DNA of 64,000 nucleotides, taken from contig NZ_JGVW01000093.1 in assembly GCF_000687455.2 (NCBI RefSeq), positions 1 to 64,000 on the forward strand, in the 5' to 3' direction. Source of the DNA: Burkholderia sp. lig30 (GTDB lineage Bacteria; Pseudomonadota; Gammaproteobacteria; Burkholderiales; Burkholderiaceae). Shown here one piece after another: positions 57,984 through 64,000 of this stretch (the stretch's first letter is position 1; every line of letters starts with the position of its first letter). Under the pieces are notes generated by a model that was not told the origin of the DNA, ran no database searches, and saw only the letters and a program-made list of their open reading frames with translations. The translations under genes and the position numbers were made by a program.

Positions 57984-58076
57984 GCGGGCGGCCGGCGCCC
58001 GCGCAACCGGGCGGGCGGTCAATAACTTGGCCGCTCTGTAAAAAGTGGTTAAGCAGGGCCTGATTTTGCCACTCTG

Positions 58077-58109
58077 ACGCCTCAGTCGACGACTGAGGCG
58101 TTTTTCTTT
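58077..58109 (+). terminator. Strong intrinsic terminator closing the glmS unit
   Basis: ACGCCTCAGTC and GACTGAGGCGT form a perfect 11-bp stem around GAC, running into TTTTTCTTT. It isolates the following two-gene unit from read-through. Confidence 0.93.
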
Positions 58110-58223
58110 GTCCCGTCGACAGAGCCGGGCGAATGGAAAGGAGCCACATTGCGACGGATGTGCCATTCCGATTACGTGACGACAACGTCCCGGTATCCGA
58201 CCACCAAGTGACGGCCCCGCTCA

Positions 58224-58240
58224 ATCCCCAAAGCAGGGAT
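58224..58240. promoter_or_regulatory. Operator 1 of the nucleotidyltransferase/HEPN unit
   Basis: ATCCCCAAAGCAGGGAT: outer arms ATCCC and GGGAT are perfectly complementary. It is the outermost of four related 17-bp sites and lies upstream of the -35. Confidence 0.6.
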
Positions 58241-58244
58241 AGAC

Positions 58245-58261
58245 GTCCCTCTATTGAGGAT
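58245..58261. promoter_or_regulatory. Operator 2, overlapping the -35 element
   Basis: GTCCCTCTATTGAGGAT is a weaker copy of the same 17-bp palindrome, 21 bases from operator 1. It contains the -35 TTGAGG (58254-58259). Confidence 0.55.
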
Positions 58262-58282
58262 TAACCAACTGATCCCTATAAT
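58254..58282 (+). promoter_or_regulatory. Promoter of the nucleotidyltransferase/HEPN unit
   Basis: TTGAGG (58254-58259) and a perfect TATAAT (58277-58282) are separated by 17 bp, a good sigma-70 promoter, 33 bases before the start codon. Both hexamers lie inside palindromes, so repression by bound protein is expected. Confidence 0.8.
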
Positions 58283-58288
58283 GGGGAC
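58272..58288. promoter_or_regulatory. Operator 3, overlapping the -10 element
   Basis: ATCCCTATAATGGGGAC contains the TATAAT box and has the same arms (TCCC/GGGGA) and 17-bp length as the neighbouring sites. Confidence 0.65.
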
Positions 58289-58292
58289 ATTC

Positions 58293-58309
58293 ATCCCTAT
58301 ATAGGGGAT
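58293..58309. promoter_or_regulatory. Operator 4, overlapping the ribosome-binding site
   Basis: ATCCCTATATAGGGGAT is the most symmetrical copy, 21 bases from operator 3. It includes the AGGGGA Shine-Dalgarno sequence of the first gene, so it lies downstream of the expected transcription start. Confidence 0.7.
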
Positions 58310-58314
58310 TCGCT

Positions 58315-58872
58315 ATGAGTCTTGCCGACTTTCTCTTCACACCGAGCCTGCAACGCGTGCTTGGCGCCACGCTGCTCCAGCCTGACCGCAGCTTTACGCT
58401 ACAGGAACTGCTGCGTCTGGCGAACAGTGGGCGCGGGAGCGCTCAAAAGCAGGTGGACCGCCTGGTCGAGGCGGGCGTACTTCGGGAAGACTCCCGACGA
58501 GGCCGGCAACGAAGCATCCGGGCGAATACCGAGTTCATTCTCTATCCCGAATTGTTGAGTATCGCACGCAAGTCATTTGCCGTTGCGGAACCACTGAAAG
58601 AAGCCCTCGAGCCTTTTGCCGACCACATCACCTCAGCGTTCGTGTTTGGCTCCGTGGCCAAGGGCACTGACAGTGGCCGGAGCGACATCGACCTGATTGT
58701 CGTCGGGAACGCCCCTCTCCTCGCTCTATCCGAGGCCCTCCACAAGGCCGAAGAAGGTCTGCTGCGCCCCGTTAACTTCTCTTTGTACGAGCCTGCCGAA
58801 TGGGCTGCCCTGGTTCAGTCCGACCCTGTCATTGCCCAGATTGCCCAAGGGCCCACGCTGAGGATACTGTGA
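58315..58872 (+). CDS. HTH-nucleotidyltransferase protein (MNT-type, likely antitoxin/regulator)
   Basis: A 185-residue two-domain protein. Residues 1-75 form a winged helix (FTPSLQRVLGATLLQPDRSF, LQELLRLANSGRGSAQKQVD, RLVEAGVLRE). Residues 95-185 are a minimal nucleotidyltransferase with the signature GSVAKGTDSGRSDIDL: Gly112-Ser113, Asp124 and Asp126. The position where a third acidic residue is expected reads RPVNFSLYEP, apparently Asn154. In MNT/HEPN systems the nucleotidyltransferase protein AMPylates and silences the HEPN partner; here the added HTH and four palindromes suggest it also represses its own promoter. It overlaps the next gene by one base. GC content is lower than in the neighbours. 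Confidence 0.82.
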   Translation: MSLADFLFTPSLQRVLGATLLQPDRSFTLQELLRLANSGRGSAQKQVDRLVEAGVLREDSRRGRQRSIRANTEFILYPELLSIARKSFAVAEPLKEALEPFADHITSAFVFGSVAKGTDSGRSDIDLIVVGNAPLLALSEALHKAEEGLLRPVNFSLYEPAEWAALVQSDPVIAQIAQGPTLRIL

Positions 58873-59309
58873 TGCCACGCCCAGCTGAATACGAAAACCT
58901 CATCAAGACGAAAGCCTTTGAGGCGGTCGCCCCGACGCCCGGCGCCATCGCGGGCTTCCTGCGTAACGCGGCGGACTATCAGGCCACCGCCGAGGAGTTG
59001 GACCCCAGCCGGCATATGCAGATATTTACCTTGGCCTACGAAGGCTATTTTCAGATAGTCCAGGCCGTCCTGGAGCGCTACGAGGTACGCACCAAAGATG
59101 CGGGCCGTAACCTGGCCATCCAGCGCGTTTCCACCTCGCTGGGTGTCAACACCCAGGAATTTGCCTTCATCACGAAGGCCCACGAGCGTCGCAACGGCAC
59201 CTCTTACGTTTCACCGTTTCCGCCCGTGTCGAAGGCTGAGGCCGCCACCATGCTCGCCATCCTGGCGAAGTACCTGCCCGTTGCGCAGACGCTGACCGGT
59301 ACGCCGTGA
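58872..59309 (+). CDS. HEPN-like partner of the nucleotidyltransferase
   Basis: A 145-residue all-helical protein without signal or membrane segment, in the size range and position of HEPN toxins. MQIFTLAYEGYFQIVQAVLE (from Met49) and FAFITKAHERRNGTSYVSPF carry the likely core. The classical RNase motif R-x4-6-H is not present. The RRN-x3-Y block (Arg106 to Tyr112) is more like the SAV_6107-type HEPN branch. The stop of the first gene overlaps its ATG (TGATG). The toxin role is inferred from the pairing; the altered motif leaves open a non-nuclease function. Confidence 0.65.
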   Translation: MPRPAEYENLIKTKAFEAVAPTPGAIAGFLRNAADYQATAEELDPSRHMQIFTLAYEGYFQIVQAVLERYEVRTKDAGRNLAIQRVSTSLGVNTQEFAFITKAHERRNGTSYVSPFPPVSKAEAATMLAILAKYLPVAQTLTGTP

Positions 59310-59365
59310 GGGCCCTGTCTTGCAGAACAGTTCGATATGAACGGGCGGACGGCAGCCACAACGAT

Positions 59366-59397
59366 AAAAAAAGCCCCAGCAGGATCACGCTGGGGCT
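59366..59397 (-). terminator. Intrinsic terminator of the iron permease operon
   Basis: On the minus strand AGCCCCAGC and GCTGGGGCT form a 9-bp stem followed by a run of seven T. It lies about 70 bases beyond the permease stop and between convergent units. Confidence 0.88.
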
Positions 59398-59468
59398 TGC
59401 GCTTCCGTCAGAGCTGACCAGCCACTCTGTTACAAAACGGTCAGGGCCGATAACGCCCCTTCGCGCAT

Positions 59469-60296
59469 TCAGGCGGCCTGCCGGGCCGCCGGCTGCGGGC
59501 GGCCGATGAGCCGCGCGAGCCCGACGATCACGACCAGCGTCGCCAGATAGGCGGCGATCTGGATCCCCGCCGGGCGCGCGGTGTAGCCGACCAGCGTATG
59601 CAGCATCTTGCCCGCCACGCTGCTTTCCTTCAGCAGCCACGACGTGTCCCACACCGCGTCGCCCCATGACGGCACGAGGCCGGCGGCCAGCAGAAAGCCG
59701 GCGCACTGGCTCGCCATGCCCGCGGCGAGCAGCACCAGCAGGCCGTTGGTCACGGAAAAAAGACGCTTGAGCGGAATCTGCAGCAGGCCGGCGTACATCG
59801 CCGCGCCGAGCCCGGCACCGCCGAGCACGCCAAGCAGGCCGCCGATCGCCATCTGCGGCGCCTGCCCCGGATCGCCCGCCGCGATCCCGTAAAGGAACAG
59901 CACGGCTTCCGAGCCTTCGCGCAGCACCGCGACGCCGACGACGATCGCCAGCCCCGTGAGCGGCTTGCTGCCTGCCGCCACGGCCCGGCCGACCGCCGAC
60001 ATGTGCTGCGCCATCTCGCGGCCGTGCTTGCTCATCCAGATGCTGTGCCACGCGAGCATCACGACCGCGACGAACATCACGCCCGCATTGAAGACCTCCT
60101 GGCCCATCCCCGACGCCCAGTTCGAGATCACGTCCGCGAACCCGGCGATCAGGCCCGCGCCGATCACGCCGCCGGCGAGCCCGCCGCCAACCCACCAGCC
60201 GCGCCGGGGCACGCCCTTGGTGGCGGCCATCACGATCGAGACGACGAGCGCGGCCTCGAGGACTTCACGAAACACGATCAGGGCGGTGGACAGCAT
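59469..60296 (-). CDS. FTR1-family iron permease (FtrC-like)
   Basis: A 275-residue inner-membrane permease with seven hydrophobic segments and both REXXE iron-binding motifs: Arg10-Glu14 (REVLE) in the first helix and Arg126-Glu130 (REGSE) in the fourth. It would move ferric iron produced by oxidation of Fe2+. It follows the cupredoxin gene by 12 bases, as in FtrBC of the Bordetella/Burkholderia FtrABCD ferrous-iron system. FtrA and FtrD are not next to it. Confidence 0.9.
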   Translation of the reverse strand: MLSTALIVFREVLEAALVVSIVMAATKGVPRRGWWVGGGLAGGVIGAGLIAGFADVISNWASGMGQEVFNAGVMFVAVVMLAWHSIWMSKHGREMAQHMSAVGRAVAAGSKPLTGLAIVVGVAVLREGSEAVLFLYGIAAGDPGQAPQMAIGGLLGVLGGAGLGAAMYAGLLQIPLKRLFSVTNGLLVLLAAGMASQCAGFLLAAGLVPSWGDAVWDTSWLLKESSVAGKMLHTLVGYTARPAGIQIAAYLATLVVIVGLARLIGRPQPAARQAA

Positions 60297-60308
60297 GGCG
60301 GTATCGGA

Positions 60309-60641
60309 TTACTTGACGGTCAGGTGAGTCTTCGACTGCGCTTCGTGGTACTCGTCGTGGAACTCGTAGCTGCCGGGCTTCAGCGGGCCGACGTACAGTT
60401 CCACTTCCTTGCCGGCCGGGATCACCTTCTCGGCCTTGAAATCGTCGCTCTCGAACTCGGCGGGCGTCGCGTCGAGGTTCTTCACCGCGAACTTGACCTT
60501 CTTGCCGGCCGGAATGGTCACGCCTTCCGGCGAGAATTTGTGGTCCTTCAGGGTCAGGCGATAGACGTCGTCGGCGGCGAATGCGGACGAGGCCGATGCG
60601 GCCACCAGGGCCAGCGTGAAGCCGAGGGCGATACGGTTCAT
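60309..60641 (-). CDS. Periplasmic cupredoxin-domain protein (FtrB-like)
   Basis: A 110-residue precursor with signal peptide MNRIALGFTLALVAASASSAFA and a single cupredoxin fold (VYRLTLKDHKFSPEGVTIPA, then GKKVKFAVKNLD, ending GSYEFHDEYHEAQSKTHLTVK). It has no Cys, so a blue-copper centre is unlikely; His, Asp and Glu residues could bind iron or copper. In the FtrABCD model the cupredoxin oxidises Fe2+ for the permease. The start at 60641 begins the signal peptide. A weak Fur-box-like sequence lies at 60678-60696. Confidence 0.85.
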   Translation of the reverse strand: MNRIALGFTLALVAASASSAFAADDVYRLTLKDHKFSPEGVTIPAGKKVKFAVKNLDATPAEFESDDFKAEKVIPAGKEVELYVGPLKPGSYEFHDEYHEAQSKTHLTVK

Positions 60642-60933
60642 GTTCGTGACGGGAATCAATATTGAGACGGAGATGATACTAAGATCGATTCGCATTTTCA
60701 CATCAAATGTCCTTGCTGACGGAATGGGAATCTGACTTCACACGCTTTCGCAACCCATTGCTTCGAAACGATTTTTTTGATCGGAGTCGGGCCGATACCG
60801 CGTCAATCAGGCTAAATACCGACTGACCGCTCGGCGGCGCCCTTGATTCGTCGGATCACATCATGACGATCGCCTGCGTGGCGAACAACCCGACACGCGC
60901 GCCGCGCACCGCTCCCGTCCCGCGTTCGCGCAC

Positions 60934-60964
60934 TTGACCTTGCCATCGTGGCAAGCTTCATCCT
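60934..60964 (+). promoter_or_regulatory. MerR/CueR-type promoter-operator
   Basis: A -35 TTGACC (60934-60939) and a -10 CATCCT (60959-60964) are 19 bp apart, the stretched spacing typical of MerR-family promoters. The spacer carries the inverted repeat ACCTTGCCA-TCG-TGGCAAGCT (8 of 9 pairs). The pattern fits CueR, activated by copper(I). The copper chaperone starts 35 bases downstream. Confidence 0.75.
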
Positions 60965-60998
60965 GTGTACGTTCATCAACACCGGACTGGAGGCAAAC

Positions 60999-61199
60999 AT
61001 GGAATTCGAAGTGCAGGACATGACCTGCGGCGGTTGCGCCAACGCGATCACCCGCGCGGTAACGGCAGCCGATCCGGCCGCGAAGCTCGACATCGACGTG
61101 GCAGCGAAGATCGTCAAGGTCGAATCGGCGCAACCCGCGGCGAGCGTGCAGGCGGTCATCGAGGCCGCCGGCTTCCACCCCGCGCTGCGCGCCGCGTAA
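60999..61199 (+). CDS. Heavy-metal-associated domain copper chaperone (CopZ-like)
   Basis: A 66-residue ferredoxin-fold protein with the metal-binding loop MTCGGC (Cys10 and Cys13), which would carry Cu(I) in the cytoplasm to an exporting ATPase. The start at 60999 follows GGAGG; a longer in-frame ATG at 60948 lies inside the promoter. The promoter looks CueR-controlled. No copper ATPase or cueR gene is in the window. Confidence 0.92.
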   Translation: MEFEVQDMTCGGCANAITRAVTAADPAAKLDIDVAAKIVKVESAQPAASVQAVIEAAGFHPALRAA

Positions 61200-61373: not shown

Positions 61374-62864
61374 TTACCGCAGCCGCACGAGCGTCGACTT
61401 CAGCTCCGTATATTTCTCGAGCGCGTGCAGCGACTTGTCGCGGCCGTTGCCCGACTGCTTGTAGCCGCCGAACGGGAAGTTCATGTCGCCGCCCTCGTCA
61501 TAGCAGTTCACCCACACCGTGCCCGCGCGCAGCCGCCGCGACACCTCGTGCGCGGTCGTGAGATCCGCCGTCCACACCGCCGCCGCGAGACCGTACTCGC
61601 TGTCGTTGGCGATCCGCACCGCCTCGTCGACGTCGTCGAACACGATCACCGACAGCACCGGCCCGAAGATCTCCTCGCGCGCGATCCGCGCGTCCGGCTT
61701 CACCTCGAACACGGTCGGCTCCACATAGAAGCCGCCGGACGCCTCGTCGACGCGCGCGCCGCCTGTCAGCAGCCGGCCTTCGCTGCGCCCCGCGTCGATG
61801 TAGCCGAGCACCCGCTGCAGCTGGATGCCGTCGACGATCGCCCCCATCGACACGGACGGATCGAGCGGATTGCCCGGCACGTATGCGCGCGCGGCGGCGA
61901 TGAGTTTCTCGATGAACGCGTCCTTGATGTCGCGATGCACGAGCAGGCGCGAGCCCGCGGTGCACATCTCGCCCATGTTGTAGAAGATCGCGCCCGCCGC
62001 CGCCTTCGCCGCGCGGTCGAGATCGGGACAGTCGGCCAGCACGATGTTCGGCGACTTGCCGCCGAGTTCGAGCCACACGCGCTTCAGGTTCGATTGCGCG
62101 GCGTACTGCATGATCAGCTTGCCGACGTTCGTCGAGCCGGTGAACGCGACGCAATCGACGTCGCGGTGCAGCGCGAGCAGCTTGCCCGGCTCGCCCGCGC
62201 CCGGCACGACGTTGAACACGCCCGCCGGAATGCCGGCCTCACAGGCGAGCTGCGCGACGCGGATCGCGGTCAGCGGCGACTTCTCGGACGGCTTGAGCAC
62301 GACGCTGTTGCCCGCCGCGAGCGCGGGCGCGAATTTCCACGCGGCCATCAGGATCGGGAAATTCCACGGCACGACCGCCGCGACGACGCCGATCGGCTCG
62401 CGCGTGACGAGGCCGACCAGATGATGATCGGCCGGCACGACTTCGCCGCCGACCTTGTCGATCGCCTCCGCGAACCACTCGACGCAATACGCCGCGCCCG
62501 GCACGTCGACCGTCGTGGTGTCGCCGATCGGCTTGCCCGCGTCGAGCGTTTCGAGCAGCGCGAGCTCGTCGAGATGCGCGCGCATCAGCGACGCCCAGCG
62601 CAGCAGCACCGCTTTGCGCTCGCGCGGATTCAGCCCCGCCCACACCTGCGCGTCGAACGCGCGACGCGCGGCGGCCACCGCCGCATCGACGTCCGCTTCC
62701 CCGCAATCGGCGACCTTCGCGAGCACGCGGCCGTCGATCGGGCTCACGCAGTCGAACGTGTTGCCGGCATGCGCGTCGCGATACGCGCCGTCGATGAATG
62801 CGCGCCCTTCGATCGCGAGCGACGCCGCCTTGTCCTGCCAGTCAGCCAAAGTCAACTTGTTCAT
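61374..62864 (-). CDS. puuC: Gamma-glutamyl-gamma-aminobutyraldehyde dehydrogenase
   Basis: NAD(P)-dependent aldehyde dehydrogenase of the putrescine utilisation (Puu) pathway, oxidising gamma-glutamyl-aminobutyraldehyde to gamma-glutamyl-GABA. The 496-residue protein closely follows E. coli PuuC, from the start (LADWQDKAASLAIEGRAFI) to the end (GGYKQSGNGRDKSLHALEKY). LELGGKSPNIV carries the catalytic Glu and YNMGEMCTAGSRL the catalytic Cys. It lies 82 bases downstream of puuR on the same strand. Confidence 0.93.
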   Translation of the reverse strand: MNKLTLADWQDKAASLAIEGRAFIDGAYRDAHAGNTFDCVSPIDGRVLAKVADCGEADVDAAVAAARRAFDAQVWAGLNPRERKAVLLRWASLMRAHLDELALLETLDAGKPIGDTTTVDVPGAAYCVEWFAEAIDKVGGEVVPADHHLVGLVTREPIGVVAAVVPWNFPILMAAWKFAPALAAGNSVVLKPSEKSPLTAIRVAQLACEAGIPAGVFNVVPGAGEPGKLLALHRDVDCVAFTGSTNVGKLIMQYAAQSNLKRVWLELGGKSPNIVLADCPDLDRAAKAAAGAIFYNMGEMCTAGSRLLVHRDIKDAFIEKLIAAARAYVPGNPLDPSVSMGAIVDGIQLQRVLGYIDAGRSEGRLLTGGARVDEASGGFYVEPTVFEVKPDARIAREEIFGPVLSVIVFDDVDEAVRIANDSEYGLAAAVWTADLTTAHEVSRRLRAGTVWVNCYDEGGDMNFPFGGYKQSGNGRDKSLHALEKYTELKSTLVRLR

Positions 62865-62946
62865 CAGGATGCCTCAATGTTGTGACACTCGCCGCGCGAC
62901 GCGGTGCGCCCGTGGCACTGCTGGCGGCGAATGCGGTGACGCGCGG

Positions 62947-63498
62947 TCAGAAGGTCGGCGGCGAATTGGCCGACACGACCTCGCAGACTTGCTCCGCGCT
63001 GGGATTGCGAAAACGGTGCGGCAAACGGCTCTCGAAGTAGTAGCCGTCTCCGGGATCGAGCAACCACGTCGTGCTGCCGACGGTCAGTTCGAGCCGGCCC
63101 GCGACGACCACGCCGCCCTCGTGCCCCGCATGCGACAGCATCTCGGGGCCGGTGTCGGCATGTGGCTGGTAGACCTCGCGCATGATGCACATGTTGCGAT
63201 CCTTCACGCCGGCGCCGACGAGATGGAACGCGAGCGATTCGTTGCCGAGATTCGGCATCTCGTCGCGTCGCGACACGACCGTGCGCGACGCGACCAGCTC
63301 GAACGTGAAGAACTCGGCGAGGCTCATCGGGATGCATTCGAGCAGCTTCTTCAACGACCCGACCGACGGGCTCACGCGGCCCTGTTCGATCAGCGAGATC
63401 GTGCCGTTGGTCACGCCGGCGCGCTTGGCGAGTTCGCGTTGCGACAGGCCGTGCTTGTTGCGCACGAAACGCAGGCGTTCGGCGACTTCGGTGGACAT
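62947..63498 (-). CDS. puuR: HTH-cupin transcriptional repressor PuuR
   Basis: A 183-residue regulator with an XRE-type helix-turn-helix (LRFVRNKHGLSQRELAKRAG, VTNGTISLIEQGRVSPSVGS) and a C-terminal cupin domain (about 110-180, GGVVVAGRLELTVGSTTWLL, PHRFRNPSAEQVCEVVSANS). E. coli PuuR represses the putrescine utilisation genes and is released by putrescine. The start at 63498 gives the family length; the longer frame to 63555 adds an unrelated extension. Adjacent puuC supports the assignment. Confidence 0.9.
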   Translation of the reverse strand: MSTEVAERLRFVRNKHGLSQRELAKRAGVTNGTISLIEQGRVSPSVGSLKKLLECIPMSLAEFFTFELVASRTVVSRRDEMPNLGNESLAFHLVGAGVKDRNMCIMREVYQPHADTGPEMLSHAGHEGGVVVAGRLELTVGSTTWLLDPGDGYYFESRLPHRFRNPSAEQVCEVVSANSPPTF

Positions 63499-64000
63499 CG
63501 ATTCGGTTTCTGCCACGATGGGGTGCGATGAGGTGCGGTGAAAAAGTGAAACCATGCATTGAACAGCCGTTAATTATTCTAATCACTTTATCGCGCGCAT
63601 TGGCGGGGAAAACCCCGAAAGGCGTTCGAAATAATCAACACCCCATTTGCCATTCCAAAGACGAATGATTTATTCGCAGTGCATCGGGTAAGCCCTGACG
63701 AATGGCCTTAAAAAAACATTTGACGCCGTTTTTGGCTCGTATATGCTGGCTCTCAGGTCAGCGTCATCTGTCCGTCATCCACCGCAAAACGCCATGTTGC
63801 AGCGCGAAATGCGGCGCCGATGGCAGCGATGCCGCCCGGCCGATGCCTCGATTATTTAAACGCCCGGTGCGTTTGAGCAATCAGGTGTTCAATACTTTCA
63901 ACAAACCAGCCGAGTGTAATCGTGAGAGTCCGTAGCCATCTGGCGAGGTGGAATCAAGGCGATGTGCGAAGTTCGCGCATCCCTTCGCCCATCCCCGACG
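63499..64000. other. Gene-free end of the window upstream of puuR
   Basis: AT-rich DNA (about 63555-63720) carries the inverted repeat CGAAT-GATTT-ATTCG at 63662-63676, then a forward promoter at 63720-63747. A frame opening with an ATG at 63962 (MCEVRASLRPSPT, cut by the edge) might be a gene start, but I cannot identify it. The other frames look random. Confidence 0.45.
63720..63747 (+). promoter_or_regulatory. Forward sigma-70-type promoter
   Basis: TTGACG (63720-63725) and TATGCT (63742-63747) are 16 bp apart. It points out of the window, presumably toward a gene divergent from puuR, leaving a leader of at least 200 bases. Confidence 0.6.

What the first reader, a model, noticed from the sequence alone, without database searches (positions are those of the whole stretch)
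58315..59309. HTH-fused MNT with HEPN-like partner and non-classical active sites
The gene pair has the order, overlap and sizes of MNT/HEPN toxin-antitoxin modules, but the first protein carries a winged helix and has Asn where a third acidic residue is expected. The second lacks R-x4-6-H and has an RRN-x3-Y block instead. GC content is lower than the flanks and strong terminators bracket the unit. It may be an MNT/HEPN-derived system with a different target or mechanism.
Basis: partly seen in the sequence, partly recalled or inferred. Interest (0 to 1): 0.72.

Follow-up and report, generated by a model that had tools for sequence, protein, structure and literature searches.

The report
Self-repressing toxin-antitoxin pair (PDC-M05)
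Two overlapping bacterial genes look like a toxin and its antidote, and the antidote carries its own DNA-binding domain that appears to switch the pair off through a row of four matching sites in their promoter.

Summary
The pair is real: A (58315-58872) is a winged-helix-MNT fusion, B (58872-59309) a HEPN protein. Both match PADLOC's uncharacterised candidate PDC-M05 (6e-54, 3.5e-8). By profile the B family is HEPN (E 2e-7), nearest PF05168 'class II'. The 'non-classical' residues are family rules: RN-x3-Y in B and Asn/His (92%, weighted) at A's third acidic position, where 28 of 30 class II MNTs keep Asp.
In 65 Burkholderia genomes the 21-bp pair marks exactly the 7 with this clade's A plus one apparent scar. 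Other clades keep the geometry, mostly with other half-sites.
Best reading: a mobile, self-repressed, type VII-like toxin-antitoxin module (empty site in 29 of 29 examined). An MNT antitoxin repressing its own operon is known in Shewanella (PMC4621449); the dedicated domain and operator code are what is new. AMPylation, RNase activity and phage defence are inferred.

The parts
58225..58239 (.). Operator site 1, TCCCCAAAGCAGGGA
   Evidence: exact TCCYY-N5-RRGGA
58246..58260 (.). Operator site 2, TCCCTCTATTGAGGA; its right half holds the -35
58254..58259 (+). -35 element TTGAGG
   Evidence: same element, 16 or 17 nt before a -10-like hexamer, is the best promoter in 13 of 20 clade loci, window included
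58273..58287 (.). Operator site 3, TCCCTATAATGGGGA; holds the -10
58277..58282 (+). -10 element TATAAT
58294..58308 (.). Operator site 4, TCCCTATATAGGGGA, 6 nt before the start codon
58315..58872 (+). Gene A: winged helix-minimal nucleotidyltransferase, 185 aa, PDC-M05A
58315..58539 (+). Winged-helix part of A (about residues 1-75; the boundary is my estimate)
   Evidence: MarR_2 at residues 14-64, below cut-off; MarR_2/HTH_20 in some relatives; weak matches to ArsR/MarR structures
58648..58692 (+). GSx10DxD nucleotidyltransferase motif, G112 to D126
   Evidence: invariant in 71 relatives; G and S were part of the search pattern, D124 and D126 were not
58774..58776 (+). Asn154 at the third acidic position
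   Evidence: N 61%, H 31%, D 4% (weighted) in 71 relatives; aligned with Asp of 2rff
58872..59309 (+). Gene B: HEPN protein, 145 aa, PDC-M05B, predicted toxin
59181..59207 (+). H104-x2-R107-N108-x3-Y112 of B (Y112 = predicted AMPylation site)
   Evidence: weighted in 70 relatives: Y112 1.00, R107 0.97, N108 0.97, H104 0.73; check on 40 profile-found rows: R 40, N 39, Y 39, but H104 only 9
58223..59310 (+). Module core shared with most other insertions of the same clade
   Evidence: blastn against 15 clade loci; matches start at 58208-58313 and end at 58876-59332
58010..59480 (.). Approximate inserted segment, absent at this position in 29 of 29 relatives examined
58076..58102 (+). Terminator hairpin upstream of the module, outside the core
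59371..59398 (-). Terminator hairpin whose T-run lies on the minus strand, outside the core

Best explanation
This is a mobile, self-repressing toxin-antitoxin module. B, a HEPN protein, is the toxin, probably an RNase working as a dimer. A is both antitoxin and repressor. Its nucleotidyltransferase half most likely neutralises B by adding AMP to Tyr112, as MntA does to HepT. Its winged helix binds four palindromes that cover the -35 and -10 and shuts off the A-B operon. When A is lost or titrated, for example during phage infection, the promoter opens and unmodified B acts. Shown by sequence here: domain make-up, the operator array and its near-restriction to this operon, the pairing, and mobility. 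Inferred: binding and repression, toxicity, AMPylation, RNase activity, and any phage role.
For: Family: PDC-M05A/B. HEPN profile: 9xbd_A 2.2e-7, 2hsb 3e-6. DxD of A invariant in 71 relatives. B motif: R 40, N 39, Y 39 of 40 rows found by profile and not by motif. Repression: four exact sites in 64 kb, all here; 20 of 20 clade loci (window included, 18 non-redundant) carry 2-4 at one mismatch or less, against 0.025 per 150 nt elsewhere in those loci. -35 and -10 lie inside sites 2 and 3. The exact paired operator is in 8 of 65 genomes: all 7 with this clade's A, plus one site without A or B in the 3 kb fetched; reversed-pattern control 0 of 65. In the other clades 53 of 99 non-redundant loci hold two near-palindromes 21 nt apart, against 316 of 5430 control windows. 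Pairing: 63 of 69 A places have a B match alongside; A-B distances correlate, r = 0.84 over 59 pairs, 0 of 2000 permutations, as co-inheritance alone would also give. B is found broken more often: 11 places with A intact and B broken or not found, 4 with A damaged and B open; one of those 4 B genes has itself lost Asn108 and Tyr112. Papers (passages): the MNT antitoxin of Shewanella binds and represses its own promoter (PMC4621449); a M. confluentis HEPN, called a distant MNT-HEPN variant, is toxic and neutralised by its nucleotidyltransferase neighbour (PMC13284704); PDC-M05A is up-regulated in phage-infected B. cenocepacia K56-2 (PMC12584637).
Against: Nothing biochemical is known for this pair. 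The M. confluentis pair was not shown to be PDC-M05. B lacks the classical R-x4-6-H and no alternative catalytic set is established; His104 is not general (9 of 40 rows). Loss of the third acidic residue could weaken metal binding in A. The window's B alone matches no Pfam or NCBIfam model. The 11-to-4 count is only suggestive (about p = 0.06, one-sided sign test, hand arithmetic), and the places scored intact were mostly not read by sequence. In Shewanella the HEPN Tyr mutant was at first still neutralised (PMC4621449), later neutralised less well (PMC7641770). One copy is carried by a phage contig, which does not fit pure phage defence.
Confidence: 0.62

Rival explanations
1. The pair is a toxin-antitoxin module as above, but neutralisation is by tight binding (type II-like), the nucleotidyltransferase fold serving only as scaffold.
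For: Third acidic residue is N/H instead of D; a DNA-binding domain with operators over its promoter is the usual type II antitoxin plan; in Shewanella the Tyr-to-Ala HEPN was still neutralised in the first study (PMC4621449, passages).
Against: D124 and D126 are invariant in 71 of 71 relatives; an inactive scaffold should lose them, as one orphan A on a Legionella plasmid without a detected B seems to have done (its DxD reads ExD).
Confidence: 0.2
2. A is the toxin (a nucleotidyltransferase acting on tRNA or another target, as MenT does) and B is its antitoxin or substrate-binding subunit.
For: Makarova 2009 first proposed this polarity for MNT-HEPN (PMC2701414, passages); nucleotidyltransferase toxins exist: MenT (PMC10435456, search listing only) and an MNT toxin with an Xre antitoxin in Streptococcus suis (PMC8406773, search listing only).
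Against: Intact A stands beside a broken or undetected B in 11 places, so A alone is tolerated; A is first in the operon and carries the DNA-binding domain; in the Shewanella and M. confluentis pairs the HEPN gene was the toxic one (PMC4621449; PMC13284704).
Confidence: 0.07
3. The pair is not a toxin-antitoxin system but an autoregulated enzyme (A catalytic, B substrate-binding, as in kanamycin nucleotidyltransferase), modifying a small molecule.
For: Weak similarity of A to aminoglycoside nucleotidyltransferases; fused HEPN-like domains are thought to bind substrate there (PMC3710099, passages).
Against: Similarity is limited to the stretch round GSx10DxD and far below family cut-offs; mobility, B decay and PDC-M05 membership fit toxin-antitoxin better; deleting the Shewanella pair changed no antibiotic survival tested (PMC4621449, passages).
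Confidence: 0.07

Closest known systems
PDC-M05 (PADLOC-DB candidate, proteins M05A and M05B)
   Same: Both proteins match (6.3e-54 and 3.5e-8); same order; PMC12988326 describes it as a nucleotidyltransferase plus a HEPN protein with antiviral role unconfirmed (passages).
   Different: No operator, winged-helix role or active-site variation is described in the passages read; function untested there.
HepT/MntA = SO_3166/SO_3165 of Shewanella oneidensis (type VII, class I HEPN/MNT)
   Same: Gene order, GSx10DxD antitoxin, HEPN with a Tyr near the motif (PMC7641770, passages); the MNT antitoxin binds its promoter and represses it, 1.6-fold, with two palindromes near -10 and -35 (PMC4621449, passages).
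   Different: HepT has RX4HXY and MntA a third Asp (D71) binding metal; MntA has no predicted DNA-binding domain and its two palindromes are dissimilar. Here there is a winged helix and four copies of one site.
Class II HEPN/MNT (PF05168/PF01909) of PMC7641770
   Same: HEPN without RX4HXY but with a conserved Tyr; MNT with GSX10DXD; the B profile hits 2hsb, listed as PF05168 in PMC3710099.
   Different: In 30 PF05168 loci sampled (some near-identical) 28 MNTs had Asp at the third position, and in 27 of 29 with a Met the first one lay 49 residues or less before GS, against 111 in A (ATG only, no HTH search made).
9xbc/9xbd (solved HEPN and nucleotidyltransferase pair)
   Same: HEPN motif RNRSDY, with a Tyr-to-Phe version in 9xbc; best structural sequence match to the B family; its MNT shows Ser at the aligned third position, in a low-confidence alignment.
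   Different: MNT chain of 120 aa with GS near residue 45; no paper on this entry was found.
HEPN-M SAV_6107 family
   Same: Listed in PMC3710099 Table 1 as lacking Rx4-6H (passages).
   Different: Listed only for actinobacteria with no operon noted; no family of that name among the hits.

Membership tests
PDC-M05 | A matches an M05A model and B an M05B model | tested here: met
   67 of 70 B relatives hit one M05B model
PDC-M05 | Adjacent two-gene system | tested here: met
   63 of 69 A places have a B match alongside
PDC-M05 | Anti-phage activity | not testable with these tools
   PMC12988326: unconfirmed (passages)
HEPN superfamily | HEPN fold | tested here: met
HEPN superfamily | R-x4-6-H RNase motif | tested here: not met
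   RN-x3-Y instead; families without the motif are accepted members (PMC3710099, passages)
Class II HEPN/MNT | PF05168 HEPN over Pfam's cut-off | tested here: not met
   no Pfam hit for the window's B; family-level similarity only
Class II HEPN/MNT | MNT with GSX10DXD and HEPN with conserved Tyr but no RX4HXY | tested here: met
HepT/MntA (class I, type VII) | RX4HXY in the HEPN | tested here: not met
HepT/MntA (class I, type VII) | MntA_antitoxin model NF047752 over its cut-off | tested here: not met
   23.1 bits against a cut-off of 60
HepT/MntA (class I, type VII) | AMPylation of the HEPN Tyr neutralises toxicity | not testable with these tools
   needs protein
Autoregulated toxin-antitoxin operon | DNA-binding domain in the antitoxin and operators over its own promoter | tested here: met
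   by sequence only; binding itself untested

The most novel reading that the evidence does not exclude
Repressor and toxin-modifying enzyme are one molecule sitting on a 21-bp-paired operator array, so toxin modification and promoter occupancy are coupled: unmodified B pulls A off the array, modified B lets it return. The Asn/His third ligand marks a separate PDC-M05 chemistry (one-metal or another nucleotide), paired with a HEPN that uses RN-x3-Y instead of R-x4-6-H.
Probability: 0.22. Interest if true: 0.7.

Novelty: new variant of a known kind. Interest (0 to 1): 0.5.

Why it matters
MNT-HEPN pairs are very widespread two-gene modules (PMC2701414, passages). Autorepression by the MNT antitoxin has one precedent: Shewanella SO_3165 binds its promoter without any predicted DNA-binding domain and represses it 1.6-fold (PMC4621449, passages). 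Class II had no biochemistry as far as its authors knew in 2020 (PMC7641770, passages). The PDC-M05 branch appears to have gained a dedicated winged helix and a readable operator code: a 15-bp, 21-bp-spaced geometry whose half-site changes with the recognition helix. That makes repression, induction by phage and operator specificity directly testable, gives a DNA signature that finds live and apparently deleted copies, and explains two odd residues as family features. Searches that listed no paper on PDC-M05 operators: (open-licence library only; most listed papers were not opened).

Tried and rejected
NCBIfam with B relatives gave only scattered weak hits. A first crude operator test did not single out the window (most repeated 6-mer p = 0.23, palindrome count p = 0.32), because the sites are imperfect and vary; it was replaced by a degenerate 15-mer. 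The half-sites were chosen after seeing the same sequences, so that table is partly by construction, and it is not purely diagonal: the window's half-site TCCYY also occurs in 5 of 6 GNxQR, 3 of 3 GRGALQREL, 2 of 3 RSxGS, 4 of 15 RGT-type and 2 of 15 TGAV loci, and TACCC in several clades. Two groups gave little or no fit: GSASVQREL 0 of 2 for every half-site, 'other' at most 1 of 8. B genes were picked by an RN-x3-Y-like pattern, which inflates the motif counts; L002 and L113, which failed the pattern, were put into the 70 by similarity, and one search is the check without the pattern. GS was part of the search pattern. Viral scan with A alone found nothing; known phages none; plasmids 34 records with an A match, of which four were opened and two have a detectable B. 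No clean terminal repeats or target duplication were seen. One search called several B genes broken that one search showed open (terminal stop counted) and missed one frameshift (L023); the 11-to-4 count uses the corrected reading. G302 was left out (A at a contig end), as were G016, G099 and G118 (A damaged, no intact B). G053 (L004, B broken) is outside the 398-genome sample. Whether the toxic M. confluentis pair is PDC-M05 could not be settled: the one mycobacterial plasmid locus opened has an A (wHTH, Asn third residue) but no detectable B.

Full report
What is there. The window holds two overlapping + strand genes. To the left lie genes with GlmU- and GlmS-type domains and two small ORFs without Pfam hits; to the right is a convergent FTR1 iron permease. 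A (58315-58872, 185 aa) and B (58872-59309, 145 aa) share one nucleotide. GC falls to 58-62% from 66-74% in the adjoining kilobase on each side, though another low patch lies at about 60250-61000. No tool names the species.

Identity. A carries a nucleotidyltransferase domain (PF01909 3.9e-9, PF18765 2.3e-7) and a weak winged helix (MarR_2 9.5e-4, under the cut-off). B matches nothing in Pfam or NCBIfam. PADLOC names both: PDC-M05A 6.3e-54 and PDC-M05B 3.5e-8. In 71 chosen A relatives G112, S113, S123, D124 and D126 never vary; G and S were in the search pattern, the other three were not. All 71 match Polbeta and 68 NTP_transf_2; winged-helix models are hit by a minority (MarR_2 in 16), and ArsR/MarR structures are matched weakly. 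In 70 chosen B relatives Tyr112 never varies and Arg107, Asn108, Tyr56, Ala55, Leu10 and Arg73 are 90% or more. Most of those B genes were picked with a motif pattern, so I checked rows found by profile only: of 40 that cover the motif (a few are the same locus twice), R 40, N 39, Y 39. The exception, in G161, has His and Asp for Asn108 and Tyr112, and the A beside it has an internal stop.

B is a HEPN. A profile of the 70 B sequences finds HEPN structures 9xbd_A (2.2e-7), 2hsb (3e-6) and 9xbc_A (4.3e-6). Five of 70 members hit PF05168 (best 9.7e-5), and 67 of 70 hit one PDC-M05B model. 9xbd_A has RNRSDY where B has RNGTSY, and the same PDB entry holds a nucleotidyltransferase. PMC7641770 (passages) defines class II HEPN/MNT as PF05168 HEPNs that lack RX4HXY but keep a Tyr that could be adenylylated. 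B fits by motif, although the window's own B is below Pfam's threshold. So 'lacks R-x4-6-H' is right but not peculiar to this locus. Position 104 is His in 73% of the weighted 70 but only 9 of 40 in the second sample, where Arg dominates, so it is a weak catalytic candidate.

The third acidic residue. In MntA, D39, D41 and D71 bind the metals (PMC7641770). In PDC-M05A the third position is Asn 61%, His 31%, Asp 4% (weighted, 71 sequences). As a control I took 30 loci with PF05168 HEPNs from a 249-genome phylum sample; some are near-identical. By my reading of the printed sequences 28 of 30 neighbouring MNTs have Asp there (exceptions L200, L210). In 27 of the 29 for which a Met was found, the first lies 49 residues or less before GS (L214 81, L193 96), compared with 111 in A. 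The change is therefore a family mark. The MNT of 9xbd has Ser, in a low-confidence alignment.

The control region. Upstream of A lie four 15-bp palindromes, TCCYY-N5-RRGGA, starting at 58225, 58246, 58273 and 58294 (spacing 21, 27, 21). They are the only four exact matches in 64 kb. All 20 loci of the clade, window included, have sites at one mismatch or less (15 with four, 2 with three, 3 with two; 18 loci are non-redundant), against 0.025 per 150 nt elsewhere in those loci; 19 of 102 loci of other clades have one or more. The -35 (TTGAGG) lies in site 2 and the -10 (TATAAT) in site 3; the same arrangement is the best promoter in 13 of 20. Searching 65 Burkholderia genomes for two exact sites 21 bp apart gives 8 genomes: the 7 that hold this clade's A over most of its length, and G049; the reversed pattern gives none. 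The G049 site has no A or B in the 3 kb fetched and stops at what looks like the start of a third site, as a deletion scar would (inference). G016, with only a decayed A fragment, has no such pair.

The operator code. Other PDC-M05 clades have palindromes of the same 5-N5-5 form, mostly with different half-sites: TAGCC for GTLHKEL proteins (12 of 14 loci), TACCG for RSSTQ (6 of 6), GTCCC for KGSLxREL (17 of 18), TTGCT for GTLKREM (3 of 3), TTCCC for TGxxHRxL (4 of 4), TTCCT for RSxGS (3 of 3), TGCCC for TGAVxREL (8 of 15), TACCC for RGT-type (6 of 15). Control windows give 0.1-2% (5430 windows). Half-sites were picked on the same data, and TCCYY and TACCC recur in several clades. The spacing was not picked: 21 nt is the commonest distance between near-palindromes upstream (76 of 514 pairs against 494 of 19,559). 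Outside the window's clade, 53 of 99 non-redundant loci have such a pair against 316 of 5430 control windows; related loci are not independent. This suggests that the winged helix binds these sites and that two dimers sit two helical turns apart. Binding is untested.

Polarity and pairing. In the family survey 63 of 69 A places have a B match alongside, and A and B distances correlate (r = 0.84 over 59 non-redundant pairs, 0 of 2000 permutations), which shared descent would also give. After reading the doubtful places, 11 have an intact A with B broken (9) or not found (2), and 4 have a damaged A with an open B. In three of those four the nucleotidyltransferase half is found and the winged-helix half is not; in the fourth (G161) a stop separates them and B has lost its Asn and Tyr. 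This fits B as the harmful partner and the MNT half as protective, but the numbers are small. In PMC13284704 (passages) a M. confluentis HEPN was toxic and its nucleotidyltransferase neighbour neutralised it; the authors call it a distant MNT-HEPN variant, and I could not show it is PDC-M05.

Precedent. In Shewanella oneidensis the MNT antitoxin SO_3165, with no predicted DNA-binding domain, binds its own promoter, which is 1.6-fold more active without the pair; two dissimilar palindromes lie near -10 and -35 (PMC4621449, passages). So self-repression by an MNT antitoxin is known. In that paper the Tyr104 mutant toxin was still neutralised; the 2020 paper found neutralisation reduced (PMC7641770). 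Makarova 2009 judged the putative antitoxin, there HEPN, unlikely to be a transcription regulator (PMC2701414, passages).

Mobility. In 29 of 29 relatives examined (of 52 others with the right flank) the flanking genes adjoin with 86-159 nt between the matched stretches; the 8 printed show a hairpin GGGGCGTC...GACGCCCC there. DNA shared with other copies runs in most of 15 loci from 58223 to about 59310, operators to the stop of B. Copies over 80% identical sit in Burkholderia, Paraburkholderia, Dechloromonas and a Rhodocyclaceae assembly. One viral contig, the one of three that I examined, carries the pair between primase/RuvC-like genes and a terminase small subunit; 34 plasmid records have an A match, and two of four opened have B.

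Phage link. PDC-M05 is a candidate defence system. PMC12988326 (passages) says its antiviral role is unconfirmed, and PMC12584637 (passages) reports up-regulation of PDC-M05A in phage-infected B. cenocepacia K56-2. That agrees with derepression, but the clade of that copy is unknown to me.

Verdict. The pair is a member of PDC-M05 and works most likely as a type VII-like toxin-antitoxin module with a class II-like HEPN. The new point is the dedicated winged helix with a largely clade-specific operator code; self-repression as such has a precedent. My odds by step: HEPN fold 0.95, autorepression 0.9, B as toxin 0.8, AMPylation of Tyr112 0.6, RNase 0.55, phage defence 0.35.

Noticed in passing
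G000:C64:30512-31484 (L002, L154): A second, distant PDC-M05 pair in the same genome (M05A 1.4e-87, M05B 2.3e-70), with His at the third acidic position and possible CATC/GATG repeats upstream.
   Followed up: partly
L123:4971-6009: The pair sits inside a phage contig, between primase and RuvC-like genes and a terminase small subunit.
   Followed up: partly
L247, around base 1500 (G049:C23:163584-163619): An orphan operator pair with no A or B in 3 kb, apparently the scar of a deleted module.
   Followed up: yes
L021 (G016:C45:82705-82833): A decayed fragment of A (43 residues, 84% identical, with an internal stop).
   Followed up: no
L228:2479-3093 (4.6-kb Legionella adelaidensis plasmid): An A gene without detectable B whose first catalytic Asp reads Glu, as if the enzyme decays once the toxin is gone.
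   Followed up: partly
L235, L239, L240: Open B preceded by a match to only the nucleotidyltransferase half of A; no winged-helix match.
   Followed up: partly
L145 and L234 (G161:C1): A has an internal stop before its nucleotidyltransferase half, and the open B beside it has His and Asp in place of Asn108 and Tyr112.
   Followed up: partly
window 60250-61000: A second low-GC patch (57-58%) over the cupredoxin-like gene, unrelated to the module as far as seen.
   Followed up: no
window 61374-63555: Aldehyde dehydrogenase gene with an adjacent HTH-cupin regulator, minus strand, ordinary.
   Followed up: no
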